Source: Sinomonas mesophila (GTDB taxonomy: Bacteria > Actinomycetota > Actinomycetes > Actinomycetales > Micrococcaceae). Taken from it: 48,340 bases of DNA. A program made the position numbers and the translations under genes. The DNA is taken from NCBI RefSeq assembly GCF_001999765.1, contig NZ_KV908333.1:1-48340 (forward strand). The letters run 5' to 3'. The notes below the pieces were generated by a model. The model did not search any database and was not told the origin of the DNA. It saw nothing but the letters and a program-made list of their open reading frames with translations. Positions 27,596 to 41,266 of the stretch are shown here, in pieces (positions within the stretch are counted from its first letter, which is position 1; each line of letters opens with the position of its first letter).

Positions 27596-28543
27596 ATGAA
27601 TGCCGCGTACTACACGGGCTTCGGCGGCCCCGAGGTCCTCCGGTTCGGCGAGCAGCCCGTGCCGAAGGTCCCGCCCGGCTGGGTGCTCGTGCGCGTCATG
27701 GCGGCGGGCGTGAACCCCGTTGACTGGAAGCTCATGGACGGTTCCCTGGACGCCATTCTCGACACGGTCTTTCCCGCGGTCCCCGGGTGGGACGTGGCCG
27801 GCGTCATCGAGCGCGTCGGCCTAGACACCCCAGAATTCAGCCCGGGGGACGAGGTCGTCGGCTACGCCCGCAAGGAGGTCGTGCGGGGCGGGACGTTCGC
27901 CGAGTACGTCGCGCTGCCGGCGGAGTCGCTGGCTCCCCGGCCGCGCGAGGGCTCGTGGGAGGCGGCCGCAGCGCTCCCGCTGGCCGGGATGACGGCGCTG
28001 CGGGCCCTCGAGCGCGCCGGGGCCGGCGCAGGCGAGCCGCGCACCGTGCTCGTCCACGCGGCCGCCGGCGGCGTCGGCCAGTTCGCCGTCAAGGCCGCGA
28101 CGGCCTTTGGCCATCGGGTGATCGGGACCGCCTCGCCGGCCAACCACGGTTTCCTCGCCGAGCTCGGGGCCGAGCCCGTCGACTACCACGGGGACTGGCC
28201 AGCGCGGGTCCGCGAGCTCGCGCCGGAGGGGGTCGACGCCGTCGTCGACTTCGTGGGCGGCGTCGTGCGGGACAGCCGCGCGCTCCTGCGCGAGGGCGGC
28301 GGGCTCGTCTCGAGCGTCGACCCGGTGGTCGTCAAGCGCGGCGGGACGCTCTCGTGGCTGCGGGCCGACGGCGCCCTCCTGGCGCGCGTCGTCGAGCTCG
28401 TGGACAGCGGCGCCGTCGCCCTCGACGAGCCCGCCGTCTACCCGCTCGCCGGCGCCGCGGCCGCGCTCGAAGCGAGCCGCGCGGGCCACGCGCGGGGGAA
28501 GCTCGCCCTCCGCGTCGCGGAGGGCGTGACCCCGGATCCCTGA
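27596..28543 (+). CDS. Zinc-less MDR NADP-dependent oxidoreductase (quinone-oxidoreductase-like)
   Basis: A protein of about 315 residues. The N-terminal GroES-like part begins AAYYTGFGGPEVLRFGE, carries VMAAGVNPVDWKLMDG and lacks the zinc Cys residues. The Rossmann part has VLVHAAAGGVGQFAVKAA for NADPH binding. Enzymes of this subgroup reduce quinones or activated double bonds. ATG 27596 gives the usual family start; ATG 27587 and 27563 are in-frame alternatives. The gene precedes the biosynthetic cluster and is separated from it by tandem repeats and a strong hairpin, so membership in the cluster is doubtful. Confidence 0.85.
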   Translation: MNAAYYTGFGGPEVLRFGEQPVPKVPPGWVLVRVMAAGVNPVDWKLMDGSLDAILDTVFPAVPGWDVAGVIERVGLDTPEFSPGDEVVGYARKEVVRGGTFAEYVALPAESLAPRPREGSWEAAAALPLAGMTALRALERAGAGAGEPRTVLVHAAAGGVGQFAVKAATAFGHRVIGTASPANHGFLAELGAEPVDYHGDWPARVRELAPEGVDAVVDFVGGVVRDSRALLREGGGLVSSVDPVVVKRGGTLSWLRADGALLARVVELVDSGAVALDEPAVYPLAGAAAALEASRAGHARGKLALRVAEGVTPDP

Positions 28544-28586
28544 GATGTGACCCCGCATCCTTGGGATGTGACCCCGCGTTGGGGAT
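28526..28586. repeat. Tandem 21-base repeats across the oxidoreductase stop codon
   Basis: Three units of about 21 bases start GTGACCCC(G)CATC at 28526, 28547 and 28568 (last one 19 bases). The first contains the stop codon of the gene. Similar units occur at 30577-30639. Confidence 0.7.
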
Positions 28587-28726: not shown

Positions 28727-28835
28727 ACCCTGAACCCCTTCCCATTCCATTCCGATGCGGGGACAGTAGTTCACGGAGAGCCCACGCGAGGCGCTTCGCC
28801 TCGGGACATGGGGAGTCCCGGCATTGGGGGGAACA

Positions 28836-29624
28836 ATGGAACGCTTGCAAGGACGCGTGGCGCTCGTCACGGGCGGGTCCGGAGGGATCGGCCGCGCGAT
28901 CTGCCTGCGGCTCGCGGCCGACGGCGCTCAGGTCGCCGTCCACTACCGGACCGGCAAGGACGCAGCGCAGGATGTCGTCGAGCAGATCGTCCGCGCGGGC
29001 GGCACGGCCACGGCCGTGGGCGGAGACGTCTCCGACGCCGCGGACGCCGCACGCATCGTCGACGAGGCCATCGGCGCGGGGGACCGCCTCGACATCCTGG
29101 TCAACAACGCGGGGGCCACGCGCAACCGGCTCATCGACGACATGGTCGAGGCCGACTGGCTCGACATCATGCGCATCAACCTCGGCGGCGTGTTCAACTG
29201 CACCCGCGCCGCGGCGTCGCGGATGCGCGGGGGAGGCTCGATCATCAACGTCTCGTCGATCATGAGCGTCAACGGCTGGCGGGGCTGCTCCGCGTACTCG
29301 ATGTCCAAGGCCGCGATCAACGCGTTCACGCGCTCGTGCGCGATCGAGTACGCGCGGTTCGGCCTGCGCGTCAACGCCGTCCTGCCCGGCTTCGTGGAGA
29401 CGGACCTCGTGTCCGACCTCATGGCGAAGGACGGCGGGCGGGGCATCCGCGCCCAGCTGCCCACGCGGCGCTCGGCGCCCGCAGACGAGGTCGCGGACGT
29501 CGTCGCCTACCTCGCCCAGGAGGGGCCGTCCCAGCTGACGGGCGCGCTCCTGCCGGTCGACGGCGGCGCGACCGCGACGCTGCTGCTCGGCCATCCGAAC
29601 AGCTCCGCGGGCCGCACTCGCTGA
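28836..29624 (+). CDS. SDR-family 3-oxoacyl-ACP reductase (FabG-like ketoreductase)
   Basis: A 262-residue short-chain dehydrogenase. Cofactor motif VTGGSGGIGRAI near the start, NNAG in the middle and the catalytic Ser-Tyr-Lys set in VSSIMSVNG...AYSMSKAAIN are all present. As first gene of the cluster it would reduce beta-ketoacyl-ACP to beta-hydroxyacyl-ACP with NADPH. GGGGGGA precedes the ATG at 28836; a TTG twelve bases upstream is not needed. The spacer to the ACP gene (169 bases) includes three tandem 17-base repeats. Confidence 0.9.
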   Translation: MERLQGRVALVTGGSGGIGRAICLRLAADGAQVAVHYRTGKDAAQDVVEQIVRAGGTATAVGGDVSDAADAARIVDEAIGAGDRLDILVNNAGATRNRLIDDMVEADWLDIMRINLGGVFNCTRAAASRMRGGGSIINVSSIMSVNGWRGCSAYSMSKAAINAFTRSCAIEYARFGLRVNAVLPGFVETDLVSDLMAKDGGRGIRAQLPTRRSAPADEVADVVAYLAQEGPSQLTGALLPVDGGATATLLLGHPNSSAGRTR

Positions 29625-29669: not shown

Positions 29670-29793
29670 TGCCGCCACAACACCACACCAGACCCGTGCG
29701 CTTCTGGCGCGCGAGGGCACGCCCTGCAGGGCCGTGTCCCGATGGCCCCTGCCCACCCACACGGCGGGCGGGCACCTACGAGAAGGAGCAACC

Positions 29794-30201
29794 ATGACCG
29801 CAGTCACCGAATCCTCCGCCCTGACGAGCGTGCAGAACATCGTCGCCGACGCCCTCGCGCTCGACTTGGACGAGGTCACCCCGGAGTCGACGCTCTTCGT
29901 CGACCTCGGCACCGAGTCGATCGACCTCCTGGACTTCCTCTTCCGCATCGAGCAGGAGCTCGGCGTGAAGATCCAGGCCGCCCAGCTGAGCGAGATCATC
30001 CAGGGCGGCATCCCCGACGAGGAGTTCGGGACGCCCGAGGGCATGGTGAGCAGCGTGGGCCTCGCCCAGTTGAAGAAGACCATGCCGCAGATCGACGAAG
30101 AGGCCCTCGCCGGGAAGCTCCCCGCCGAGGACGTCATGAACCACTTCACCGTCGGCAACCTCGCCGCGATCGTCGCCGCGCATGGCGCAGACCGCTCCTG
30201 A
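29794..30201 (+). CDS. Acyl carrier protein with a long insertion
   Basis: A 135-residue ACP, well above the usual 75-90. Helix I, LFVDLGTESIDLLDFLF with Ser42 as the phosphopantetheine site, and the last-helix motif FTVGNLAAIV are all seen. The distance from Ser42 to that motif is about 77 residues against about 27 in E. coli AcpP, so roughly 50 residues are inserted in the helix II/III region (about 66-115). The residue before Ser42 is Glu, not the common Asp. AAGGAG precedes the ATG at 29794. The gene overlaps acpS by 20 bases, so its product is probably activated by it. The insertion could be a docking element for the cluster's KS or dehydratase partners. Confidence 0.85.
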   Translation: MTAVTESSALTSVQNIVADALALDLDEVTPESTLFVDLGTESIDLLDFLFRIEQELGVKIQAAQLSEIIQGGIPDEEFGTPEGMVSSVGLAQLKKTMPQIDEEALAGKLPAEDVMNHFTVGNLAAIVAAHGADRS

Positions 30202-30580
30202 GCCTCGCATCGGGGTGGACCTCGTCGCCGTCGCCCGCATCGAGCGGATCGTGCACGACGGCGGGGGCCTCCTCGGCGCGGTCTTCTCGCCCGAGGAGCT
30301 GGCCGGGGGCACGGGCGCCGAGTACCTGGCCGGCCGGTTCGCCGGGAAGGAGGCCGTCGCGAAGGTCCTCGGCACGGGCTTCTCCCGCGGTGTGGGGCCC
30401 CTCGAGATCGAGGTCCTGCGCGGCCGGCTCGGGTCGCCGCGCGTCCGGCTCACGGGGGCCGCCGCGGCCTCCGCCGAGGCACAGGGCCTGGGCCCGATCG
30501 ACCTCTCCATCTCACACACGGGCGGCATCGCCGTCTGCGTGGCCGTCGCCGCCGCACCAGCGGTGGCCTCAGAGGAATGA
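30182..30580 (+). CDS. acpS: Holo-ACP synthase
   Basis: A 132-residue AcpS-type phosphopantetheinyl transferase. RIGVDLVAVARIERI holds the Mg-binding Asp, and the second motif RFAGKEAVAKVLG has the catalytic Glu and Lys. The fold ends with a ISHTGGIAVCVAVA strand. It moves 4'-phosphopantetheine from CoA to the ACP Ser. Actinobacteria often have a housekeeping acpS downstream of glmS. This copy sits inside the cluster and overlaps the ACP gene, so it may be dedicated to it or may be the only acpS. The stop codon lies within a tandem repeat. Confidence 0.9.
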   Translation: MAQTAPEPRIGVDLVAVARIERIVHDGGGLLGAVFSPEELAGGTGAEYLAGRFAGKEAVAKVLGTGFSRGVGPLEIEVLRGRLGSPRVRLTGAAAASAEAQGLGPIDLSISHTGGIAVCVAVAAAPAVASEE

Positions 30581-30639
30581 CCCCGCATCGCAGGGACGTG
30601 ACCCCGCATCGCTGGGACGTGACCCCGCATCCAGACCTG
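30577..30639. repeat. Tandem 21-base repeats across the acpS stop codon
   Basis: Three units, 30577-30597, 30598-30618 and 30619-30639, share TGACCCCGCATC. The first contains the acpS stop. The same unit is found at 28526-28586. Confidence 0.75.
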
Positions 30640-30685: not shown

Positions 30686-31153
30686 ATGAGATTCCACCTC
30701 ATCGACCGGGTGACCGAGATCGACCCGGGGCGCGGGCTCCGAGCCCGCAAGCTCACGAGCCACGCCGAGCCGTACTGGCGCTCGGCCCGCATGCCCGTGC
30801 CGCTCATCGTCGAGTCCTTCTGCCAGGCCGCCGCGTGGCTCATCTATGCGGGCAGCGGCGGCCGCGAGCGCGGGCTCGTTCTGCAGTTCGGGCACATCGA
30901 GGCCCACGGCCCCGTCCTGGCCGGCGACGTCGTCGACATCGCGGTGGACGTTGTCTCCGCCACCGACACGTCGATGGTCGTCCGCGGGACCGCGAGCGTG
31001 GACGGCGTCATCGTCGTAACGCTCGAGGACATCATGTGCGCGATCACCGAGGCCGGGGGCCTCGAGGATACCCGCTCAACGTCAGACCGCCAGGCCACTG
31101 TCTTTGCGGGAACCGTCGTTGCGGATACCGCGTCTGCGGGGGCCGCGGCATGA
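30686..31153 (+). CDS. Hotdog-fold dehydratase-like protein with Glu but no catalytic His (DH1)
   Basis: A 155-residue FabZ-like protein. It aligns at HLIDRVTEIDPGRGLRARK and at MPVPLIVESFCQAAAWLI, where Glu43 matches the catalytic Glu68 of E. coli FabZ. The adjacent GHFPG segment that carries the catalytic His is replaced and shortened (EPYWRSARMP). A long C-terminal tail is low-complexity. Alone it should be inactive. The second hotdog protein of the cluster (32399-32917) has the opposite defect, so a heterodimer is inferred. AAAGGA precedes the ATG at 30686, and the stop overlaps the KS start by four bases. Confidence 0.8.
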   Translation: MRFHLIDRVTEIDPGRGLRARKLTSHAEPYWRSARMPVPLIVESFCQAAAWLIYAGSGGRERGLVLQFGHIEAHGPVLAGDVVDIAVDVVSATDTSMVVRGTASVDGVIVVTLEDIMCAITEAGGLEDTRSTSDRQATVFAGTVVADTASAGAAA

Positions 31154-32409
31154 GGGCCGTTGCCATCACCGGCATCGGCGCCGTCACGCCCCTGGGTACG
31201 ACGGCGGACTCGACCTGGGCGGGGCTCGTCGCCGGCCGCTCCGGCGTGGGACAGATCGAGACCTTCGACCCGTCGTCGTTCCCCGTGCGCATCGCGGGGC
31301 ACGTGCGCGGCTTCGACGCGGCCTCTGTCCCCGCGGTCTCCGGCGCGGAGTACCTCGGCCGGGCGGCCGGCTTCGGCGCGGCGGCCGCGGCGGAGGCGCT
31401 GGACCAGGCCGCCCCGTCCGCCGAGGCGCACCCCTCCGACCGCCGCGGCGTGTTCGTCGGCGGCCACGTCGGCCGGCCCGAGCCCGAGGAGCTCGCCGAG
31501 ATCGCCCACTCGCTGGCGCTCACGGGCGGCCGGCCGGAGCGCCGGCGGGACCTCGCGTCCGTCCTGACCACGAGCCAGGGGGTGGACATCACCGCGATCG
31601 CTGAGATCGCCGACGCCAACGGCCCGGTGATCGGCATCAGCACCGCGTGCGCGTCCTCCGCCCACGCCCTCGGCGAGGCCGTGCGGCGCATCCGCGCCGG
31701 GGAGATCACGCTCGCCGTGGCGGGCGGGCAGGACAGCCTCACGACCTGGCTCGATGTTGCCGGGTTCTCCCTCCTGGACGCGCTCACGACGACGCACAAC
31801 GACGACCCGCAGTCGGGGTCGCGCCCCTTCGAGGCCACGCGGGACGGCTTCGTTCTGGGTGAGGGCGCCGTGTTCGCCGTCCTCGAGGACGGGGAGGCGG
31901 CGCTCGCCCGCGGTGCGCGCGTCCTCGCCTGGATCGACGGCTACGCCGCGACCATGAACGCCTACCGCATCACGGACGCGCCCCCGGACGGCGGCCGCTC
32001 GATCGACGTCATGCGCCGCGCGCTCGACGACGCCGGCACGGGGCCCGAGGCGGTCGACGCCGTCTTCGCGCATGGCACCAGCACGCCCGGCAACGACATC
32101 TCGGAGACCACCGCCATCCGGGCGGTCTTCGGCGGCCACGCCGACTCCCTCGCGGTGACGGCGACGAAGTCCATGACCGGCCACCTCACCGCCGGCGCCG
32201 GCGCGCTCAACGTCCTCGCTGCCGTCTACGCATTCCGCGACCAGACCATGCCGCCCACCATCAACTACGACCAGCCCGACCCGGCGCTGACCCTCGACCA
32301 CGTGCCCCACACGGCGCGCGCCCAGCGGGTCGACCGTGCCCTCGTCAACGCCTTCGCCTTCGGCGGCACGAACGCCGCGCTCGTCCTCAGGAGCCCTCAT
32401 GCCCAGTAG
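31150..32409 (+). CDS. Beta-ketoacyl-ACP synthase, KS-alpha type
   Basis: A 419-residue FabF-like condensing enzyme with a full Cys-His-His set: STACASSAHA (Cys167), HGTSTPGND, and KSMTGHLTAGAG. FGGTNAALVL marks the end of the fold. It would extend the ACP-bound chain by decarboxylative condensation with malonyl-ACP. The ATG overlaps the stop of the preceding gene (ATGA). A KS-like gene lacking the catalytic residues follows two genes later, as in KS-CLF pairs of type II polyketide synthases, where the CLF sets chain length. Confidence 0.9.
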   Translation: MRAVAITGIGAVTPLGTTADSTWAGLVAGRSGVGQIETFDPSSFPVRIAGHVRGFDAASVPAVSGAEYLGRAAGFGAAAAAEALDQAAPSAEAHPSDRRGVFVGGHVGRPEPEELAEIAHSLALTGGRPERRRDLASVLTTSQGVDITAIAEIADANGPVIGISTACASSAHALGEAVRRIRAGEITLAVAGGQDSLTTWLDVAGFSLLDALTTTHNDDPQSGSRPFEATRDGFVLGEGAVFAVLEDGEAALARGARVLAWIDGYAATMNAYRITDAPPDGGRSIDVMRRALDDAGTGPEAVDAVFAHGTSTPGNDISETTAIRAVFGGHADSLAVTATKSMTGHLTAGAGALNVLAAVYAFRDQTMPPTINYDQPDPALTLDHVPHTARAQRVDRALVNAFAFGGTNAALVLRSPHAQ

Positions 32410-32917
32410 CACTCTCACTCGGGAGGCCGCGCGCCTGTGCGCGGGTCCCGGCTTCGCGCTGCCCAGCCCCGCACCGACCCCCGCACCGGGGGACGGACTG
32501 GCGCTGGACCGCATCACCGGCCTCACCGCCGCGTCCGGCCGCGCGCTCGTGAACGTCCCGAGCACGCTGCCGCTCTTCGACACCCACTTCCAGCGCTCGC
32601 CGATCGTCCCCGGCGTGCTCTACCTCCAGCTCCTCGCGGACCTGGCCGCCCTCGTCGTCGCTCAGGGCGACCCCGATGCCGTGGAATCCTCGACGCTGCG
32701 CGAGGTCCAGCGCGCCAAGTTCCGCCGGATGGGCCGCCCTGGCGACCAGCTGACGGTCTCCGTGGAGGCGCTGGCGCCGCACCGGCCGCTGGGTGACGCG
32801 ACGGACGACGGCGGCGCCGCCTTCCGCGGCTCGGTCGCCGTCCCCGAGGGGATTCTCATGGACGTGCGCCGTTTCGTCGTGGTGCCCGGCCCCTCCCCGA
32901 GGGAGGTGCTGGCATGA
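32399..32917 (+). CDS. Hotdog-fold dehydratase-like protein with His but no catalytic Glu (DH2)
   Basis: A 172-residue FabZ/FabA-like protein. THFQRSPIVPGVLYLQLLADLA aligns with the FabZ active-site helix. His63 matches FabZ His54, and Gln77 replaces Glu68 at the same 14-residue spacing. Glu is therefore lost while His is kept, the mirror image of DH1. In FabZ dimers the two residues come from different subunits, so DH1 and DH2 together can build one site. AGGAG precedes the ATG at 32399, which overlaps the KS gene; the stop overlaps the next start (ATGA). The N-terminus (about 1-45) is Pro/Ala-rich and may be a linker. Confidence 0.8.
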   Translation: MPSSTLTREAARLCAGPGFALPSPAPTPAPGDGLALDRITGLTAASGRALVNVPSTLPLFDTHFQRSPIVPGVLYLQLLADLAALVVAQGDPDAVESSTLREVQRAKFRRMGRPGDQLTVSVEALAPHRPLGDATDDGGAAFRGSVAVPEGILMDVRRFVVVPGPSPREVLA

Positions 32918-34254
32918 GCATGAGGCGCAATGCCCCCATGAGGCGCGTCGCCGTGACTGGTATCGGCATGGCCGGGGCCCTCGGCCGCGAGGTCCCGCAG
33001 GTGTGGGGCTCGCTCCTCGCGGGCGGCTCCGGCATCGGGCCGATCTCGGCCTACGATCCCTCCGCGCTGCTCACCCAGGTCGCGGGCGAGGTCCCCGAGT
33101 TCGACGTGCGCCCCGCGCTGAGCAAGCGCCGCGCCGTCAAGCTCATGAACAGGGCCTCCCAGCTCGCGATGTCCGCCCTCTCGGGCGCCCTGCGGGACGC
33201 CGCCCTGGACCCGGCGGCCCTTGATCCCTCCGGGGTCGGCGTCTACATGGCGAGCGAGAACCAGATCTCGGACGCGACCCACGTCCTCCCCGCGACGCTC
33301 AAGGCCCGCCGCCCGGGCGGCGGGATCGACCCCGAGGCCCTCGGCAAGGCGGCCATGGAGATGTACCCGCTGTTCTTCCTCGAGGGGCTTCCCGCCGCCG
33401 CGCTCTTCTTCGCCTCCGAGCAGTACGGCTTCGCTGGCCCCAACGCCTTCTACTCCGGCTCCGCGGACGCGGGGGCGTCGGCGGTCGGAAACGCCTTCCG
33501 GGCGGTCGCGCAGGGCGACTGCTCCGTCGCCGTCGCCGGCGCGTTCGACGACGCCGCCTCCTGGTGGTCGATGATCAAGATGGACGTCCTCGGCGTGCTC
33601 GCCCCCGCACAGGTGGACGACGACGAGGCGTACCGTCCGTTCTCCGCCGACGGCCGCGGGACCGTCCTGGGCGACGGCGCGTGCATGCTCGTGCTCGAGG
33701 ACCTCGAGTCCGCCCGCGCGCGGGGCGCCCGCATCTACGCCGAGGTCACCGGATTCGGGGCGGGTTGGGACCGCGGCGCGCCGCTCGAGTTCTGGCGGCA
33801 GGGACCCGGCCTGGCCACCGCCATGCGGCAGGCCCTCCGGGAGGCCGGGCTCACCGGCGCCGAGGTGGGCCTCGTCCTCGCGGACGGCAGCGCCGACGCC
33901 GTCGGCGACGCGATCGAGGCGTCCGCCATCGCTGAGGTCTGCGGCGAGCCGCTCGTCACCTGCGCCCACGCCGCGCTCGGCCACCAGCTCTCCGCGGCGG
34001 GGACCCTCAACGTCGCGCTCGCCGCGCTGGCCCTCTCGACGGGGGCCCTGCCGCCGACCCTCACCACCGAGCCCCTCGCGGACTACGCCCCGCCGCGGCT
34101 CGTGCGCGGCGGCCCCGCCATGCATGAGGCGCGCGTGGCCCTCGCGCTCGCCCGCGGGCTCGAGGGGCAGTCCGTGGCGGTCGCCCTCGCGGCCGCACCG
34201 CAGGAGGCGGGGCGCCCCGCCTCCGTCCCCGACCTCGAAGGAGCCTCCTCATGA
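32914..34254 (+). CDS. Chain-length-factor-like KS (KS-beta), catalytically dead
   Basis: A 446-residue KS-fold protein. The nucleophile loop reads YSGSADAGASAVG, and gap-free alignment with the cluster KS puts Ala184 at the catalytic Cys. The first His motif becomes ADGSADAVGD; the second His survives in AALGHQLSAAG. It cannot condense but keeps the dimer interface, as in chain-length factors. Its partner is most likely the KS of 31150-32409, two genes upstream. Both ends overlap neighbours by four bases. Confidence 0.85.
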   Translation: MSMRRNAPMRRVAVTGIGMAGALGREVPQVWGSLLAGGSGIGPISAYDPSALLTQVAGEVPEFDVRPALSKRRAVKLMNRASQLAMSALSGALRDAALDPAALDPSGVGVYMASENQISDATHVLPATLKARRPGGGIDPEALGKAAMEMYPLFFLEGLPAAALFFASEQYGFAGPNAFYSGSADAGASAVGNAFRAVAQGDCSVAVAGAFDDAASWWSMIKMDVLGVLAPAQVDDDEAYRPFSADGRGTVLGDGACMLVLEDLESARARGARIYAEVTGFGAGWDRGAPLEFWRQGPGLATAMRQALREAGLTGAEVGLVLADGSADAVGDAIEASAIAEVCGEPLVTCAHAALGHQLSAAGTLNVALAALALSTGALPPTLTTEPLADYAPPRLVRGGPAMHEARVALALARGLEGQSVAVALAAAPQEAGRPASVPDLEGASS

Positions 34255-36635
34255 GCGCCGCTGTTGCTGTCCTGCCCGGTGGAGTGCCGGGGGCGATGCC
34301 GGCCCGACCCGCCCGCCGCGCCGTCGCCGTCGTCGCGCTCGGCGCGGTGACGGCCCACGGCACCACCGCCGAGGACCTGTGGGAGGGTGCCGGCGCGGGA
34401 CGGGTCGCGATCTCCGCCGTCGAGCACCTGCCGACCGAGGGCTACACGACCCGGCTCGGCGGAGAGGTCAAGGCAGAGGTCTCCGCCTCGCCCGTGTCCG
34501 GGACGGTCGGCGGCTTCCGCGACCGGTCCTTCGACTTCATGTTCGCGGCTGCCGGCGAGGCGTCGGGGAAGGCGGCGATCGCGTTCGACGCCGTCCCGCC
34601 CGAGCGCCGCGGGCTCGTCCTGGGCACGTGCAACGCCGGGATGCTCTCCGCCCTCGAGTGGTACCGCGAGCCCTCGGCCCATCCGAGGCTGCCTCTCTAC
34701 GGGCCGCCGCAGTCGATGGCCGAGTCCCTCGCCGCGCACCACGGCGTCCGCGGGCCGGTCCTGACGGTCAACACGGCGTGCGCCGCCGGGGCCAACGCGC
34801 TCGGGCTGGCGGCCGATCTCGTCGCGGACGGCCGCGCGGACCTCGTGTTCGCCGGCGGGAGCGACGGCCTGGCCGACCTCTCGTACGCGGGCTTCAACTG
34901 CCTCGGCTCGCTCTCGCCGCGCCCGGCCGCCCCCTACGCCGCGGACCGCAGCGGCCTCTCCCTCGGCGAGGGCTCGGGCATGATGGTCCTGATCGCGAGC
35001 AGCCTCGCGGCCGAGCTCGGCCTCGAGGTCCTGGCCGAGGTCCGCGGGTACGGCCTCTCCGCGGACGGCTTCCATCCGACCGCCCCGCACCCCGAGGGCC
35101 TCGGGGCGGCGCGGGCCATCCGCTCGGCCCTCGAGCAGGCCGGGGCGGCCCCGGAGGACGTGGACTACGTCAACAGCCACGGGACCGGGACGCCCAAGAA
35201 CGACTCGGCCGAGTCGAGGGCCACCGTCCTCGCGATCCCCGGGGCCCGCACCGACGTTCCCGTGAGCAGCACGAAGTCCATGGTCGGGCACCTCCTCGGG
35301 GCGGCGGGGGCCGTCGAGGCCGTCGTCACCGTCCAGGCGCTCCAGCACCAGACGGTGCCGCCGACGGCGAACATGACCGCCCCCGACGAGGACTGCGCGC
35401 TCCGGCACGTTCCCAACGCGCCCGAGCAGCGGCCCCTGCGCCTCGCCGTGTCGAACAACTTCGCCTTCGGCGGCGCCAACGCGAGCCTCGTCCTGGGCCT
35501 CCCCGGCGCGCCGTCCCGGCCCGGGCCGGCGGGCGACATCCGCGTCGTCGTGACCGGGGCCGGGGCCGTCACCGCGGCGGGGCGCGGCCTGGGCGCCGTC
35601 GAGGAGGCGAGGCGCTCGCCGTCGGCCCCCCGGGGCCTCGGCGGCGTCCCCGTGCGCCGGGTCCAGGCCCCAGAGGAGCACCCCTATGTCTCCCGGCGGG
35701 ACTCGCGCCGCATGGACCGGCTCAGCACGCTCTCGATCCTCGCGGCGGGGGACGCGCTCGCCGAGGCGGGCGAGTCGCTCCTGGCGGAGCCGGAGCGCGT
35801 GGGCGTCGTGTTCGGCACGGGCATCGGCCCCATGGAGGCCATGGAGTCGTTCTACCGGCCCGTGCTGGCCGACGGCGCCTCCGCGGCGAACCCCGGCGTG
35901 TACCCCAACCTCGTGTACAACGCCGCCGCCGGCGCCGTGGCGACCCACCTGCGCACCCTCGGGCCGACGTCGACCGTCACGACCGGCCACGCCGCCGGGG
36001 CGACGGCGCTCGCCTACGCCGCCGACCTCCTGCGCACGCACCGCGCGGACGCGATCGTCGCGACCGCCTGCGACGTCCTCACCGCGTCCGTCGCCCGCGC
36101 CTACGCCGGGCTCGGGGTGCCGTTCAGGGGCGGGCTCGCGCTCGGCGAGGCCGCGGCCGCCGTCGTCCTCGAGACCGCGGAGTCGGCACAGCGACGGGGC
36201 GCGGCCGCCTCCGCCGAGCTGCTCTCGCACGCGACGGCGTCCGACGCCCTGGGCCCGGGGCTCTGGGACCCCCGCGGACGCGGCGCCGAGCGCGCGATGC
36301 GCGAGGCCCTCGAGCTGGCCGGGCTCGCCCCCGGGGACGTGGCCGAGGTGTGGGCCGCCGACTGCGGCTGGGAGGAGCACGACCGCCCCCAGCGCGAGGC
36401 CGTCCAGAGGGTCCTCGGCCCGGACGCGCGGCGGGAGAGCGCGTGGACCGCGGTCGGCGAGCCGATCGGCGTCGGCGGGCTCCTGCGGGCCGCGCTCGCG
36501 GCGCGCCGGCTCGGCGCCCGCGCCTCGGGAGGCGCCGGCACCCCGGCCAGCACCAGGACCTCGGGGGGCGCCGTCGTCGTGAGCGCGAGCTCGTGGGGCG
36601 GAACCCACGTGTGCCTCGTCCTCGCCCCGCTCTGA
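34251..36635 (+). CDS. Fused KS-CLF protein (active KS plus dead KS-like half)
   Basis: A 794-residue tandem. The N-terminal half (about 25-425) is a full KS: NTACAAGANA (Cys177), HGTGTPKND and KSMVGHLLGAAG. The C-terminal half (about 430-794) is a KS fold in which Cys becomes His580 (TTGHAAGATA), the first His is lost (ADCGWEEHD) and the second is Glu in VGEPIGVGG. This is the arrangement of a KS-alpha/KS-beta heterodimer on one chain. With the separate KS and CLF it gives the cluster two condensing systems. The ATG overlaps the CLF stop (ATGA). The sequence is continuous with no sign of frameshift joining. Confidence 0.88.
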   Translation: MSAAVAVLPGGVPGAMPARPARRAVAVVALGAVTAHGTTAEDLWEGAGAGRVAISAVEHLPTEGYTTRLGGEVKAEVSASPVSGTVGGFRDRSFDFMFAAAGEASGKAAIAFDAVPPERRGLVLGTCNAGMLSALEWYREPSAHPRLPLYGPPQSMAESLAAHHGVRGPVLTVNTACAAGANALGLAADLVADGRADLVFAGGSDGLADLSYAGFNCLGSLSPRPAAPYAADRSGLSLGEGSGMMVLIASSLAAELGLEVLAEVRGYGLSADGFHPTAPHPEGLGAARAIRSALEQAGAAPEDVDYVNSHGTGTPKNDSAESRATVLAIPGARTDVPVSSTKSMVGHLLGAAGAVEAVVTVQALQHQTVPPTANMTAPDEDCALRHVPNAPEQRPLRLAVSNNFAFGGANASLVLGLPGAPSRPGPAGDIRVVVTGAGAVTAAGRGLGAVEEARRSPSAPRGLGGVPVRRVQAPEEHPYVSRRDSRRMDRLSTLSILAAGDALAEAGESLLAEPERVGVVFGTGIGPMEAMESFYRPVLADGASAANPGVYPNLVYNAAAGAVATHLRTLGPTSTVTTGHAAGATALAYAADLLRTHRADAIVATACDVLTASVARAYAGLGVPFRGGLALGEAAAAVVLETAESAQRRGAAASAELLSHATASDALGPGLWDPRGRGAERAMREALELAGLAPGDVAEVWAADCGWEEHDRPQREAVQRVLGPDARRESAWTAVGEPIGVGGLLRAALAARRLGARASGGAGTPASTRTSGGAVVVSASSWGGTHVCLVLAPL

Positions 36636-36674: not shown

Positions 36675-37784
36675 ATGCCCATCGTCAACCTCATCTCCAC
36701 CGGATCCCACCGCCCCGGCGAGCCGATCCCGAACCGCACCATCGAGGAGCTCGCGGGCCACCTCCCCGCCGAGGTGCTCGAGGGGCTCCAGGTCACCGAG
36801 CGCCACTGGATCATCGACCCCGTCACGGGCGAGCACCGCACGAGCAACTCCCGCATGGCCGCGGACGCGGCCCTGCACGCCCTCGGCCGCGCGGGTCTGG
36901 AGCCCGCCGACGTAGACCTCGTCGTCGTCTCCACCGCGAGCCCCGAGTTCCACCTGCCGGCGGTCTCGAGCCTCGTGCTCGAGCTCCTCGGCATCCCCGA
37001 GGCCACCGCCCTCGACGTCCGCTCGGGCTGCGCGGGGTTCGTCCAGGCCATGGACATCGCGCGCCTCCAGCTCGAGGCGGGGGCGGCCCGCCGCGCCCTC
37101 GTGATCGGCTCCGAGGTCATCTCCCCGATCGTGCACCCCATCTACCGGGGCAAGGAGCCGGGGAAGGTGCGTATGCGGGACCGCATCCTCGCCTACACCT
37201 TCGGGGACGGGGCGGGCGCGGTGCTGCTCGAGGCTTCGGACGGCGCGGACGACGGCGCGCTGCCCGCCGGGGCCGGCATCTCCGGCTCCGTCCTGCGCAC
37301 CGTCGGCGGGCTCCGCAAGCCCGGCATGAAGATCTCGGGCGGCGCCACGCACGCGCCGCTGCACGAGCAGCAGGCCGCGCGCCGGCTCGTGGACCTGTAC
37401 GTCGACGTCGTCGAGTCCGGCCGGTTCATCCCGCACATGCTCACCCGCTCGATCCAGGAGCTGCTCGCGGCCACCTCGACCGCCGCGGCCGACGTCGACC
37501 TGATCGTCATCCCCGAGGGCAACGCGGGCTATGTCACCGGCGAGCTCGAGGCCGCGGGCCTGCTGACCGAGGACTGGATGGCCCTGCGGGACAAGGTCTA
37601 CGAGAACATCGGCAGCGTGGGCGCGACCGGCTCCGCGGCGGTACCGCTCGCCCTCGACGAGGCCGCCTCGACGGGCCTGCTGTCCGAGGGCGACACGCTC
37701 ATGCTCCTCGCGATCGAGACGAGCAAGTGGACGTACGCGGGCATGGGCCTGCGCTGGCACGGGGGAGCGGCATGGGCGGCGTGA
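36675..37784 (+). CDS. KASIII-like protein (FabH/KSIII family) lacking His and Asn of the triad
   Basis: A 369-residue thiolase-fold protein. The nucleophile loop DVRSGCAGFVQAMDIA keeps Cys119. The His motif of FabH is replaced (VIPEGNAGYVTG, Glu281 in place of His). The Asn motif becomes VGATGSAAVPLALDEA, with Ala for Asn. Decarboxylation of malonyl-ACP is therefore doubtful; KASIII relatives with changed triads act as acyltransferases that load or transfer acyl groups. Its likely job is starter loading or product transfer. GAAGGA precedes the ATG at 36675. Its stop lies within the start region of the hydrolase gene. Confidence 0.85.
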   Translation: MPIVNLISTGSHRPGEPIPNRTIEELAGHLPAEVLEGLQVTERHWIIDPVTGEHRTSNSRMAADAALHALGRAGLEPADVDLVVVSTASPEFHLPAVSSLVLELLGIPEATALDVRSGCAGFVQAMDIARLQLEAGAARRALVIGSEVISPIVHPIYRGKEPGKVRMRDRILAYTFGDGAGAVLLEASDGADDGALPAGAGISGSVLRTVGGLRKPGMKISGGATHAPLHEQQAARRLVDLYVDVVESGRFIPHMLTRSIQELLAATSTAAADVDLIVIPEGNAGYVTGELEAAGLLTEDWMALRDKVYENIGSVGATGSAAVPLALDEAASTGLLSEGDTLMLLAIETSKWTYAGMGLRWHGGAAWAA

Positions 37785-38626
37785 GGGATACGACCGGCAC
37801 GGCCGGCATGACCAGCACGGCCGGTATGACTCGGCTGAACAGCACAGTCCTCGAGCAGCGCTCCCTCGAGCTCGACGGCCGCCGCCTCGCCTACGCCGTC
37901 CGGCCCGGCGGCCCGCGGACCCTCTGCTTCGTGCACGGGCTCGGCGCGCGCTGGCAGACGTTCCGCAGGCTCATGGCGCACATCGGGCCCGAATGGACCG
38001 TCCTCGCCTTCGACCAGCGCGGGCACGGGCAGTCGTCCTGGACCACCGGCCGCTACGCGCTCGCGGACTTCGCGGGCGACCTCGTGGAGTTCGTCCGCGC
38101 CGTCACCAGCGGGCCGCTGGTCCTGTACGGGCACTCCCTCGGCGGCTGGGTCAGCGCCCTCGCCGCCCCGCGGCTCGCCGACGTCCTGCTCGGGGTGGGC
38201 GTCGAGGACTCCGCCCTCTACGAGCCGGCCGCGGAGCTGCAGGCGGAGATGGAGGCCTTCGCCCGGCCCGGCGCCGTCATGCGCTCCCTGAACCCGTCCC
38301 TCCGCCTCGCGGATCCCGGCCTCGAGGCCCGGTGGACCGAACGCCGCGCCCACGCGGAGCAGGACCCGCGCGAGATGCTCGCCGCGCTCCCGTGCCCCCT
38401 CCTGCTCGTCCGCGGGGACACGGCGGCCGGCGGTCTCCTGAGCGCCGAGTCCGCCCACCGGGCACTCCGCGCGACGGCAGTCCCCGCCACCGAGGTGTTC
38501 GTCGCGGGAAGCCCCCACGCCGTCCACGCGAAGGAGCCGGGGACCGTGGCGCGCGCCATCGCGGACTTCGCCACCCATCTCTCCACTACGGGAGTAGAAC
38601 GCGACGTCAGGCGGTGGCCGGGATGA
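37772..38626 (+). CDS. Alpha/beta hydrolase (putative releasing thioesterase)
   Basis: A 284-residue hydrolase. CFVHGLGARW forms the oxyanion region, YGHSLGGW the nucleophile elbow (Ser122). LLLVRGD gives the likely acid and SPHAVHAKEP the His. GGGGGAG precedes the ATG at 37772; the gene overlaps the KASIII end by 13 bases, and a GTG at 37781 is an alternative. Inside the operon it most likely frees or transfers the finished acyl chain from the ACP; a type II editing thioesterase is the other option. It ends the first block of the cluster. Confidence 0.85.
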   Translation: MGGVRDTTGTAGMTSTAGMTRLNSTVLEQRSLELDGRRLAYAVRPGGPRTLCFVHGLGARWQTFRRLMAHIGPEWTVLAFDQRGHGQSSWTTGRYALADFAGDLVEFVRAVTSGPLVLYGHSLGGWVSALAAPRLADVLLGVGVEDSALYEPAAELQAEMEAFARPGAVMRSLNPSLRLADPGLEARWTERRAHAEQDPREMLAALPCPLLLVRGDTAAGGLLSAESAHRALRATAVPATEVFVAGSPHAVHAKEPGTVARAIADFATHLSTTGVERDVRRWPG

Positions 38627-39008: not shown

Positions 39009-40760
39009 ATGAACCCGTCCGACACCCACGCCACCTGGCACCGCTGCCCCGGGTGCCAGCAGCTCCACTACCTGCCGCGCGTGCGCCGCAGCCTCGGCGT
39101 CTGCCCGGGCTGCGGCCGGCACCACCGGCTGGGCTCGCGCGAGCGGCTCGACCTCCTCGCGGACCCCGGCAGCTTCGTCCCCGCCGAGGACCTCCCGGAG
39201 GTCCGCTCCGTGGACGTCCTCGGCTTCACCGACACCCGCCCCTACCCCGAACGGCTCGACGGGGCGCGGCGCAGGACCGGGCTCACGGACGCCGCCGTGT
39301 ACGGCACGGCGAGGATCGAGGGCCAGCCCGCCGTCGTCGTCGTCATGGACTTCGCCTTCATGGGCGGCTCGATGGGCAGCGCCGTCGGCGAGCTCGTGAC
39401 CCGGGCGGCCGAGAGTGCGCTCGAGAGCCGCCTGCCGCTGCTCGTCGTGTGCGCCTCGGGCGGGGCGCGCATGCAGGAGGGGCCGCTGTCCCTCATGCAG
39501 ATGGCCAAGACCGGGCAGGCCTTCGGCCGACTGCGCGAGGCAGGCATCCTGAGCGTGTGCCTCCTGACCGACCCGACCTACGGCGGGGTGACGGCCTCGT
39601 TCGCGATGCTCGGCGACCTCGTCGTCGCGGAACCCGGCGCGATGATTGGCTTCGCGGGGCCGGGGGTCATCCGGCAGACCATCGGGGAGGAGCTTCCGGA
39701 GGGGTTCCAGACCGCTGAGTTCCTCCTCGAGCACGGGATGCTCGACGCGGTGCTGCCGCGGTCCGAGGCGCGCGGCTTCCTCGGGCGGGTCTTCGGCGCA
39801 TGGCACCAGACGCACGGGTGGGACCGTGCAGTCGGTACGGCCGGCGCCCTCGGTGCGGTTGCCGCCGTCGTGCGCGACCCCTCGCGCCTGCCCCGGCAGG
39901 ACGCGGCGGCCACGGTCCGGCTCGCCCGCACCTCGGGCCGGCCCACGACCCTCGACTACCTGGCCCTCGCCTTCGACTCGTTCACGGAGTTCCACGGCGA
40001 CCGGCTCGGCCACGACAGCAAGGCCATCGTCGGCGGCCTCGCACTCCTCGAGGGCGTGCCTGTGATCGTGGTCGGCCACCAGAAGGGCCGGAGCACGAGG
40101 GAGTCCGTCCTGCGGAACTTCGGCATGCCCGAGCCGGACGGGTACCGGAAGGCGCTGCGCCTCATGAAGCTCGCCGTGACGTTCGGCGTTCCCGTCGTGA
40201 CGCTAATCGACACGCCCGGGGCGTACCCGGGGATCGACGCCGAGAAGCACGGCCAGGCCGTCGCGATCGCGGAGTCCATCCTCGAGGCGTCCCGGCTGCC
40301 CGTGCCCGTCGTCGCCTGCGTGACCGGCGAGGGCGGAAGCGGCGGGGCGCTCGCGCTCGCGGTCGCGGACCGCGTGCTCACGCTCGAGAACAGCTACTAC
40401 TCGGTCATCAGCCCCGAGGGCTGTGCGACGATCCTCTTCAACGACGCCGGCCAGGCCCATCGGGCCGCCGAGGCGCTGCGGCTCACGCCCGCGGATCTCC
40501 TCGACCTCGGCGTCGTGGACGCCGTGGTCCGCGAGCCCGACGGCGGGGCCCACCTCGACGCCGCCGCGACGGCCGAGCGGCTCCGTGCCGCGCTCGTCGA
40601 GCACCTCACGGAGCTCGTGCCCCTCGGCGCCGGGGAACTCGTCGAGCGGCGCCAGGGCCGCTTCCGGGCCTTCGGGGCCTTCGAGCCCTTCGAGGCGTTC
40701 GGTGATCAGGCCGCCGTCGTACCACTCAACCACCACACGATGGGAGCGCAGAGCGCATGA
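39009..40760 (+). CDS. Acetyl-CoA carboxylase carboxyltransferase, AccD-AccA fusion
   Basis: A 583-residue fusion. The N-terminal zinc ribbon has Cys13/16/32/35 (CPGC...CPGC), typical of AccD. An AccD crotonase-type domain (about 70-290) has CASGGARMQEG. An AccA-type domain (about 310-560) has FTEFHGDRLG and DTPGAYPGIDAEKHGQ, and GEGGSGGALALAVADRV. It moves CO2 from carboxybiotin to acetyl-CoA to give malonyl-CoA. Unlike the usual actinobacterial AccD (acyl-CoA carboxylases with one beta subunit), this is the bacterial AccA/AccD type. The stop overlaps the accB start (ATGA). GAAAGG precedes the ATG at 39009. Its place beside the KS genes indicates dedicated malonyl-CoA supply. Confidence 0.92.
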   Translation: MNPSDTHATWHRCPGCQQLHYLPRVRRSLGVCPGCGRHHRLGSRERLDLLADPGSFVPAEDLPEVRSVDVLGFTDTRPYPERLDGARRRTGLTDAAVYGTARIEGQPAVVVVMDFAFMGGSMGSAVGELVTRAAESALESRLPLLVVCASGGARMQEGPLSLMQMAKTGQAFGRLREAGILSVCLLTDPTYGGVTASFAMLGDLVVAEPGAMIGFAGPGVIRQTIGEELPEGFQTAEFLLEHGMLDAVLPRSEARGFLGRVFGAWHQTHGWDRAVGTAGALGAVAAVVRDPSRLPRQDAAATVRLARTSGRPTTLDYLALAFDSFTEFHGDRLGHDSKAIVGGLALLEGVPVIVVGHQKGRSTRESVLRNFGMPEPDGYRKALRLMKLAVTFGVPVVTLIDTPGAYPGIDAEKHGQAVAIAESILEASRLPVPVVACVTGEGGSGGALALAVADRVLTLENSYYSVISPEGCATILFNDAGQAHRAAEALRLTPADLLDLGVVDAVVREPDGGAHLDAAATAERLRAALVEHLTELVPLGAGELVERRQGRFRAFGAFEPFEAFGDQAAVVPLNHHTMGAQSA

Positions 40761-41266
40761 CCACGAGCGACACCGACGCGACACCGGCCGCCGACATCGC
40801 GGCTGCCGCGATCCTCCTGCGCGAGGCCCTCGCCATCGCGGACTCCTCCGGGCGCACGCCGGCCCGCATCGCCCTTGCTGTGGGCGGGGCGTCGGTCGAG
40901 GTCGACTGGAGCCAGACCCCGGCGGCGGCCGCGCCGCAGCCCCTCGCCCTGACGGGCGCGCCGTCCGCCGTCGTCCCGGCCGCCGGGGCGGACGACGGCG
41001 GGGCGATGCCCGGCATCGCCGTCGAGTCGCCGCTCGTGGGCACGTTCTACCGGGCGCCCTCGCCCGAGGCGGACCCCTTCGTGTCCGTGGGGGACGTCGT
41101 CGAGGAGGGCCAGACCATCGCGATCGTCGAGGCCATGAAGCTCATGAACACGATCACGGCCCCCGAGCGCGGGCGCATCTCCGCGATCCTGCCCGAGGAC
41201 GGGGACCGGGTCGAGTTCGGCCAGCCGCTCGTGAGGCTCGTGCCGCTCGGGACGGACGCGGCATGA
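40757..41266 (+). CDS. accB: Biotin carboxyl carrier protein
   Basis: A 169-residue BCCP. The N-terminal half is helical and Ala/Pro-rich. The C-terminal biotinyl domain has SPLVGTFYRAPSPEADPFV and the VEAMKLMN motif, with Lys128 as the biotin site, typical of AccB. It shuttles carboxybiotin between AccC and the carboxyltransferase. Both ends overlap neighbours by four bases (ATGA). The length and the thumb segment (PSPEADPF) match AccB of the multi-subunit enzyme. Confidence 0.94.
   Translation: MTTSDTDATPAADIAAAAILLREALAIADSSGRTPARIALAVGGASVEVDWSQTPAAAAPQPLALTGAPSAVVPAAGADDGGAMPGIAVESPLVGTFYRAPSPEADPFVSVGDVVEEGQTIAIVEAMKLMNTITAPERGRISAILPEDGDRVEFGQPLVRLVPLGTDAA

What the first reader, a model, noticed from the sequence alone, without database searches (positions are those of the whole stretch)
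30686..32917. Two dehydratase-like proteins with complementary broken active sites
DH1 keeps the FabZ catalytic Glu (Glu43) but has lost the His-bearing HFPG segment. DH2 keeps the His (His63) but has Gln77 where Glu should be, at the exact 14-residue FabZ spacing. In FabZ homodimers each active site combines His of one subunit with Glu of the other. The pair therefore predicts an obligate heterodimer with one working site and one dead site per dimer. Heterodimeric dehydratases are known (HadAB/BC, ApeI/ApeP). A clean His/Glu split between two genes is, to my knowledge, unusual.
Basis: partly seen in the sequence, partly recalled or inferred. Interest (0 to 1): 0.9.

Follow-up and report, generated by a model that had tools for sequence, protein, structure and literature searches.

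The report
Two-gene dehydratase sharing one active site
Two neighbouring genes in an actinobacterial lipid/polyketide gene cluster most likely make the two halves of one dehydratase, one giving the catalytic histidine and the other the glutamate; this is an arrangement already seen in other bacterial pigment clusters, so it is a good example rather than a new principle.

Summary
DH1 (30686-31153) has the FabZ Glu (Glu43) and no HFPG; DH2 (32399-32917) has His63 and Gln77 where the acid should be. They are the only two FabA/FabZ-family loci in this nearly complete genome. Relatives in other Actinomycetota, many on Streptomyces plasmids, keep the order DH1-KS-DH2. In 28 such pairs (window included) DH2 His is 28/28 and DH1 Glu 28/28. 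The other two positions drift: DH1's His position holds 8 residue types (His in 4/28), DH2's acid position is E18 D6 G3 Q1. This fits one working composite site (DH2 His + DH1 Glu) and one decaying site, so the heterodimer reading is well supported. But the clean split is not a conserved trait, and it is not new: in the published ApeI/ApeP heterodimer family, 14/14 sampled ApeP keep Glu without HFPG, 14/14 ApeI keep His, and 9/14 ApeI have no acid. Heterodimer formation itself was not tested: no complex could be modelled, and a naturally fused homologue folded poorly. Verdict: new member of a known kind.

The parts
28824..29624 (+). 3-oxoacyl-ACP reductase (FabG-like KR)
   Evidence: NCBIfam 3oxo_ACP_reduc 1.8e-63, below its cut-off; a KR lies directly upstream of DH1 in the Streptomyces clusters
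29794..30201 (+). acyl carrier protein (start at the first ATG inside ORF 29734-30201)
   Evidence: PF00550 3.7e-13 on 29785-30201; the choice of ATG 29794 is a reading
30182..30580 (+). phosphopantetheinyl transferase (AcpS type)
   Evidence: NCBIfam TIGR00556 70.2 bits, cut-off 45.35
30686..31153 (+). DH1: FabZ-like hotdog subunit, keeps Glu43, HFPG segment lost
   Evidence: Glu43 in 28 of 28 syntenic pairs
31150..32409 (+). ketosynthase (KS) with active-site Cys (STACASS), between DH1 and DH2
   Evidence: NCBIfam fabF 1e-111; Cys motif read; a KS lies behind DH1 in all 28 pairs (only 277 aa in L233)
32399..32917 (+). DH2: FabZ-like subunit, keeps His63, Gln77 in place of the acid
   Evidence: His in 28 of 28, acid position E18 D6 G3 Q1
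32914..34254 (+). KS-like protein without the active-site Cys (chain-length-factor-like)
   Evidence: NCBIfam fabF 2.2e-65; motif FYSGSADAGAS read
34251..36635 (+). KS and CLF-like halves fused in one 794-aa protein (first half with Cys, second without)
   Evidence: two ketoacyl-synthase stretches; motifs read; a gene of the same size (about 2.37 kb) follows in L173 and L174
36675..37784 (+). KAS III-type ketosynthase
   Evidence: PF08545/PF08541, NCBIfam
37778..38626 (+). alpha/beta hydrolase, thioesterase-like (start uncertain)
   Evidence: PF12697 2e-16, PF00975 1.3e-6
39009..40760 (+). acetyl-CoA carboxylase carboxyltransferase (two parts in one protein)
   Evidence: PF03255 1.2e-108, PF01039 1.6e-36
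40757..41266 (+). biotin carboxyl carrier protein
   Evidence: PF00364 9.1e-22

Best explanation
DH1 and DH2 are the two subunits of one 3-hydroxyacyl-ACP dehydratase in a reducing type II PKS/fatty-acid-like cluster (KR, ACP, PPTase, KS, CLF-like, fused KS-CLF, KAS III, malonyl-CoA supply). They pair as a FabZ-type dimer; the working site combines His63 of DH2 with Glu43 of DH1 (inferred), and removes water from ACP-bound 3-hydroxyacyl chains after the KR step (inferred). The opposite site would combine DH1's lost His position with DH2's acid position; it is dead and both positions drift. In the window's lineage the drift has gone to Gln77, so neither protein alone has a full dyad. Shown here: family, residues, gene order, conservation pattern, no other FabA/FabZ locus in the genome. 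Inferred: dimer formation, geometry, reaction, product.
For: 28 of 30 examined sources gave a DH1-KS-DH2 set. DH1 Glu 28/28, DH2 His followed by Phe 28/28; DH1's His column holds A6 S4 D4 H4 E4 P3 Q2 N1, DH2's acid column E18 D6 G3 Q1: invariance falls on exactly the two residues of one composite site. 28 distinct DH1 and 25 distinct DH2 sequences. PF07977 is matched in the own genome only by DH1 and DH2 (genome 99.98% complete). Natural fusions of a His-less, Glu-bearing domain with a His-bearing domain occur in L057 and L140. The same kind of asymmetry occurs in 23 of 23 more distant Streptomyces DH pairs examined and in ApeI/ApeP, for which a heterodimer 'with a single active site' is in print (PMC8041823, passage). 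The DH1 model is a FabZ-like hotdog.
Against: No complex was modelled and no activity is known; the fused homologue L057 folded poorly (pTM 0.43), so the geometry is untested. 24 of 28 DH2 keep Glu or Asp, so a DH2 homodimer could work in those relatives; both domains of DH2's kind in the fusions L057 and L140 also keep an acid. In 4 of 28 DH1 (L178, L180-L182) a His stands at the FabZ spacing, though followed by Thr, not Phe, and not shared by their nearest kin. 14 of the 28 pairs are from Streptomyces and several are near-identical. Two acid losses are what the tree shows, but one origin is not rejected (AU p 0.10). MaoC-type dehydratases elsewhere in the genome were not searched for.
Confidence: 0.8

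Rival explanations
1. DH2 works as a homodimer with His63 alone or with another acid, and DH1 is an accessory or scaffold protein.
For: 24 of 28 DH2 in the syntenic pairs have both His and an acid. PMC6697708 (passages) cites a single-base mechanism with His as the base in type I DH domains, so an acid-less site might keep some activity.
Against: Does not explain why DH1's Glu is 28/28 invariant while its His position drifts through 8 residue types, nor the loss of DH2's acid in the window (Gln) and in L136, L240 and L241 (Gly).
Confidence: 0.1
2. The pair, or DH2 alone, does another hotdog reaction, such as decarboxylation or isomerisation.
For: AmcE, a DH-like protein of the cispentacin cluster with the FabZ His but differing residues near the substrate site, is a decarboxylase (PMC10698177, passages).
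Against: A KR beside the KS genes suggests 3-hydroxyacyl intermediates that need a dehydratase (inference), and no other FabA/FabZ locus exists in the genome. The retained DH1 Glu is not explained.
Confidence: 0.07
3. The residue losses are decay of a non-functional cluster, not a working split.
For: The window's proteins sit on a long branch (1.48).
Against: Open frames with coding composition, KS Cys motif in place, the invariant Glu and His kept, gene overlaps kept.
Confidence: 0.03

Closest known systems
ApeI/ApeP heterodimeric dehydratase of aryl polyene clusters (PF22818/PF22817)
   Same: Type II PKS setting; one subunit (ApeP) keeps Glu and lacks HFPG (14 of 14 sampled), the other (ApeI) keeps His (14 of 14) and often lacks the acid (9 of 14). 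In print as a heterodimer with a single active site (PMC8041823, passage).
   Different: The window proteins match FabA/FabZ (PF07977), not the ApeI or ApeP models, at E up to 1, though 3 of 4 DH2-family members give weak ApeI-like matches, best 4.4e-4. Different cluster and gene order. Whether by descent or convergence was not tested.
Paired dehydratases of Streptomyces, probably cinnamoyl-lipid-type clusters (GlaS/GlaT, EpcN/EpcO)
   Same: Two FabZ-like proteins side by side or fused; one with HY/HF..PG and an acid, the other with ES[WF].Q and no HFPG, in 23 of 23 loci L190-L212 (these are the 23 distant matches for which a locus was returned, of 48 listed). Two DH genes are named in such clusters in print (PMC9381841, PMC9321520; passages).
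   Different: The His partner keeps E (20) or D (3) in all 23; the His-bearing domain comes first and no KS lies between. That L190-L212 belong to cinnamoyl clusters is my inference.
Double-hotdog DH domains of type I PKS
   Same: One His/Asp dyad per double hotdog; FluA DH His69 and Asp231 (PMC6697708, passages). That they lie in different hotdog halves is recalled.
   Different: One polypeptide, Asp in place of Glu.
FabZ homodimer
   Same: Family and fold, HF..PG context in DH2, Glu in the helix of DH1.
   Different: FabZ has both residues in each chain and two equal sites (recalled); neither window protein has both.
HadAB of mycobacteria
   Same: Heterodimeric hotdog dehydratase with a single active site (PMC4491049, passages incl. 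abstract).
   Different: Both catalytic residues (Asp36, His41) come from HadB; no MaoC match in DH1 or DH2 of the window.

Membership tests
FabZ (3-hydroxyacyl-ACP dehydratase, NCBIfam equivalog) | score above the curated cut-off (113 / 155.15 bits) | tested here: not met
   DH1 41.5 / 35.2, DH2 54.9 / 48.3 bits
FabZ (3-hydroxyacyl-ACP dehydratase, NCBIfam equivalog) | catalytic His and Glu in the same chain, 14 residues apart | tested here: not met
   DH1 Glu only; DH2 His only, Gln77
FabA-like domain (PF07977) | score above Pfam gathering cut-off of 23 bits | tested here: met
   DH1 26.1, DH2 41.1 bits
ApeI/ApeP dehydratase | match to PF22817 (ApeP-like) / PF22818 (ApeI-like) | tested here: not met
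   no match at E up to 1 for DH1 or DH2; no ApeP match among 4 DH1-family members; weak ApeI-like matches in 3 of 4 DH2-family members, best 4.4e-4
ApeI/ApeP dehydratase | one subunit Glu without HFPG, partner with His | tested here: met
   same in ApeI/ApeP
ApeI/ApeP dehydratase | forms a heterodimer with one working site | not testable with these tools
   no complex prediction on hand; fused homologue model poor
HadAB-type (hydratase 2 / MaoC) dehydratase | MaoC-like domain with D-x-N-P-x-H motif in one subunit | tested here: not met
   no MaoC match for DH1 or DH2 and motif absent from both translations; 2 of 4 DH2-family members do give weak MaoC matches, best 7.3e-4

The most novel reading that the evidence does not exclude
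The pair belongs to a separate, FabZ-derived line of two-gene dehydratases in Actinomycetota in which the His/Glu division arose independently of ApeI/ApeP and of type I PKS DH domains, so that splitting one site over two hotdog chains is a repeated outcome, with the dead site's acid lost more than once.
Probability: 0.25. Interest if true: 0.55.

Novelty: new member of a known kind. Interest (0 to 1): 0.35.

Why it matters
If confirmed, it gives a clear biochemical test case: two proteins that should each be inactive and be active together, with one residue in each to change. The survey also suggests that asymmetric dehydratase pairs are common in reducing type II PKS clusters, so 'two DH genes' in such clusters may often be one enzyme. 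This helps annotation and heterologous reconstitution, where leaving out one gene would look like a failed pathway.

Tried and rejected
Structure: the natural DH1-DH2-type fusion of L057 was folded as a stand-in for the heterodimer (three rows, mean pLDDT 60, pTM 0.43) and is too poor to use; the DH1 model alone is good. No complex prediction is offered, no DH2 model was made, and the box held no coordinate file, so the His-Glu distance was not measured.

Rejected readings: FabZ homodimer (residues missing); HadAB type (no MaoC match in the window pair); clean split as conserved trait; clean split as unusual. My own first reading that DH1 never has a His at the FabZ position was wrong: 4 of 28 do.

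Independent loss of DH2's acid: the tree (DH1+KS+DH2, acid column left out) needs 2 changes, but holding window, L136, L240 and L241 together is not rejected (AU p 0.10), and the window is a long branch. Left open.

Led nowhere: the KS-bait scan of genome contigs (80 loci kept) gave FabZ-family domains in only 3 of those loci (L057, L074, L132). The DH1 alignment found only G233 itself in its class (1 of 66). The DH1 alignment matched in 23 of 36 of the bait genomes; those I read were mostly ordinary FabZ with both residues. Paper searches. The JACS 2019 aryl polyene paper (doi 10.1021/jacs.8b10776) is not held, so its account of ApeI/ApeP was not seen.

Full report
What is there. Both are FabA/FabZ-family proteins by Pfam, NCBIfam and PDB sequence, below the FabZ equivalog cut-offs. 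DH1 folds as a FabZ-like hotdog with Glu43 in helix 38-56; the 50 PDB matches listed are all FabZ-type dehydratases, TM-score by target length 0.71-0.85. DH2 was not modelled. DH1 and DH2 show no significant similarity to each other by BLASTP.

Setting. The genes sit in a reducing type II PKS/fatty-acid-like cluster: KR 28824, ACP about 29794, PPTase 30182, DH1, KS 31150, DH2, CLF-like 32914, a KS-CLF fusion 34251, KAS III 36675, a hydrolase about 37778, and acetyl-CoA carboxylase parts from 39009; a biotin-carboxylase-like start (MRRVLIANRGEIALRI) can be read at 41264. In the own genome PF07977 is matched only by DH1 and DH2, so no FabZ or FabA stands in for them; MaoC-type dehydratases were not searched for.

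Relatives. Near kin rarely have it. DH1 matches in 2 of 98 relatives including the own genome; the second (G038/L140) is a fused two-hotdog protein. DH2 matches in 4 of 98; the three others, all of the same genus, are ordinary FabZ with His and Glu. In the phylum sample DH1 matched in 21 of 396 genomes and DH2 in 164 of 396. Of 59 ORF entries read from the loci held then (some of them repeats), 54 have both His and an acid at the FabZ spacing; the other five are all from G233. G233 (L136) has both genes in the same order. DH1 matched 13 plasmid records, all Streptomyces, at 36-38% identity. The 10 that I opened, all linear, read fabD-ACP-KR-DH1-KS-DH2-KS and then a further KS gene. In 295 genomes of one genus 47 matched the DH1 alignment at 1e-10, 7 of them at 1e-59 or better; I take the genus for Streptomyces because two places agree with the plasmid records. 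In 394 genomes of the class 15 matched at 1e-15, 13 of them, own genome included, at 1e-50 or better.

Conservation. From 30 sources, 28 gave DH1 and DH2 on one strand about 1.6-1.9 kb apart, each with a KS in between (only 277 aa in L233). DH1 Glu: 28/28. DH2 His: 28/28, always followed by Phe. DH1's column at the FabZ His: A6 S4 D4 H4 E4 P3 Q2 N1. DH2's column at the FabZ acid: E18 D6 G3 Q1. Half of the set (14 of 28) is from Streptomyces; 28 DH1 and 25 DH2 sequences are distinct. So constraint rests on one His and one Glu, from different proteins, and is weaker on the reciprocal pair. This is what one composite site per heterodimer predicts.

Results against a clean split. 24 of 28 DH2 keep an acid, and 4 of 28 DH1 (L178, L180, L181, L182) have a His at the right spacing, so in those four pairs both proteins carry both letters. 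The DH1 His is followed by Thr and replaced by Ser, Ala or Asn in nearest kin. Loss of the acid in the window (Gln) and in L136/L240/L241 (Gly) looks like two events on the tree, but one event is not rejected (p 0.10).

Wider pattern. Of 48 more distant matches listed, the 23 with loci (L190-L212) were read: 23 of 23 have a His-bearing DH with E (20) or D (3) next to or fused with a Glu-bearing DH that has lost HFPG. L057 carries a natural fusion in which the first domain has Ile for His and keeps Glu, and the second has both; in L140 the first domain has both and the second keeps Glu without HFPG. A protein from a MAG labelled Nitrospirae (L144) with a DH1-like start has both residues.

Known precedent. 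[quoted passage not shown] I therefore sampled that family: 13 of 185 genomes in one class had ApeI, and all 13 also had ApeP, 12 of them on the same contig. With E. coli CFT073, 14 ApeI have His 14/14, and at the acid position H5 D4 G2 S1 A1 E1; 14 ApeP have Glu 14/14 with the HFPG segment lost (one FabZ row left out). Thus 9 of 14 ApeI/ApeP sets show the same clean split as the window. I found no paper stating this residue pattern in the searches and the passages read, but the main biochemical paper was not held.

Mechanism. Most likely DH1:DH2 is one dehydratase with DH2 His63 as base and DH1 Glu43 as the acid partner (roles from knowledge of FabZ, recalled), acting after the KR. Dimer formation, geometry and reaction are inferred; the attempt to model a fused homologue failed.

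Verdict. Observation confirmed; the heterodimer reading well supported though untested; the claim of rarity not supported. New member of a known kind, interest 0.35.

Noticed in passing
window 34251-36635: KS and CLF-like halves are fused in one 794-aa protein beside a separate KS and CLF-like gene; a gene of the same size follows in the Streptomyces plasmid clusters L173 and L174.
   Followed up: partly
window 28526-28577 and 30577-30628: 21-nt spaced tandem repeats TGACCCCGCATCnnnGGGAnG near and between genes of the cluster; 24 matches of the 30-nt pattern across the own genome, 0 for the reversed control. Function unknown.
   Followed up: partly
L173-L182: The same DH1-KS-DH2 cluster lies on linear Streptomyces plasmids of 139-297 kb (10 opened of 13 records matched by DH1); a monooxygenase, an aldo/keto reductase, an AMP-binding protein and a protein annotated 'thermostable hemolysin' are nearby in L173 and L174.
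   Followed up: partly
L140 8238-9107 (-), L057 7375-8301 (+): Natural two-hotdog fusions with a His-less Glu-bearing domain and a His-bearing domain, in opposite orders.
   Followed up: partly
window 31067-31150: The C-terminal tail of DH1 (residues 128-154) has pLDDT under 50 and aligns poorly with orthologues.
   Followed up: no
L004, L005, L006: Three genomes of the window's genus have an ordinary FabZ (His and Glu), while the window's own genome has none besides DH1/DH2.
   Followed up: partly
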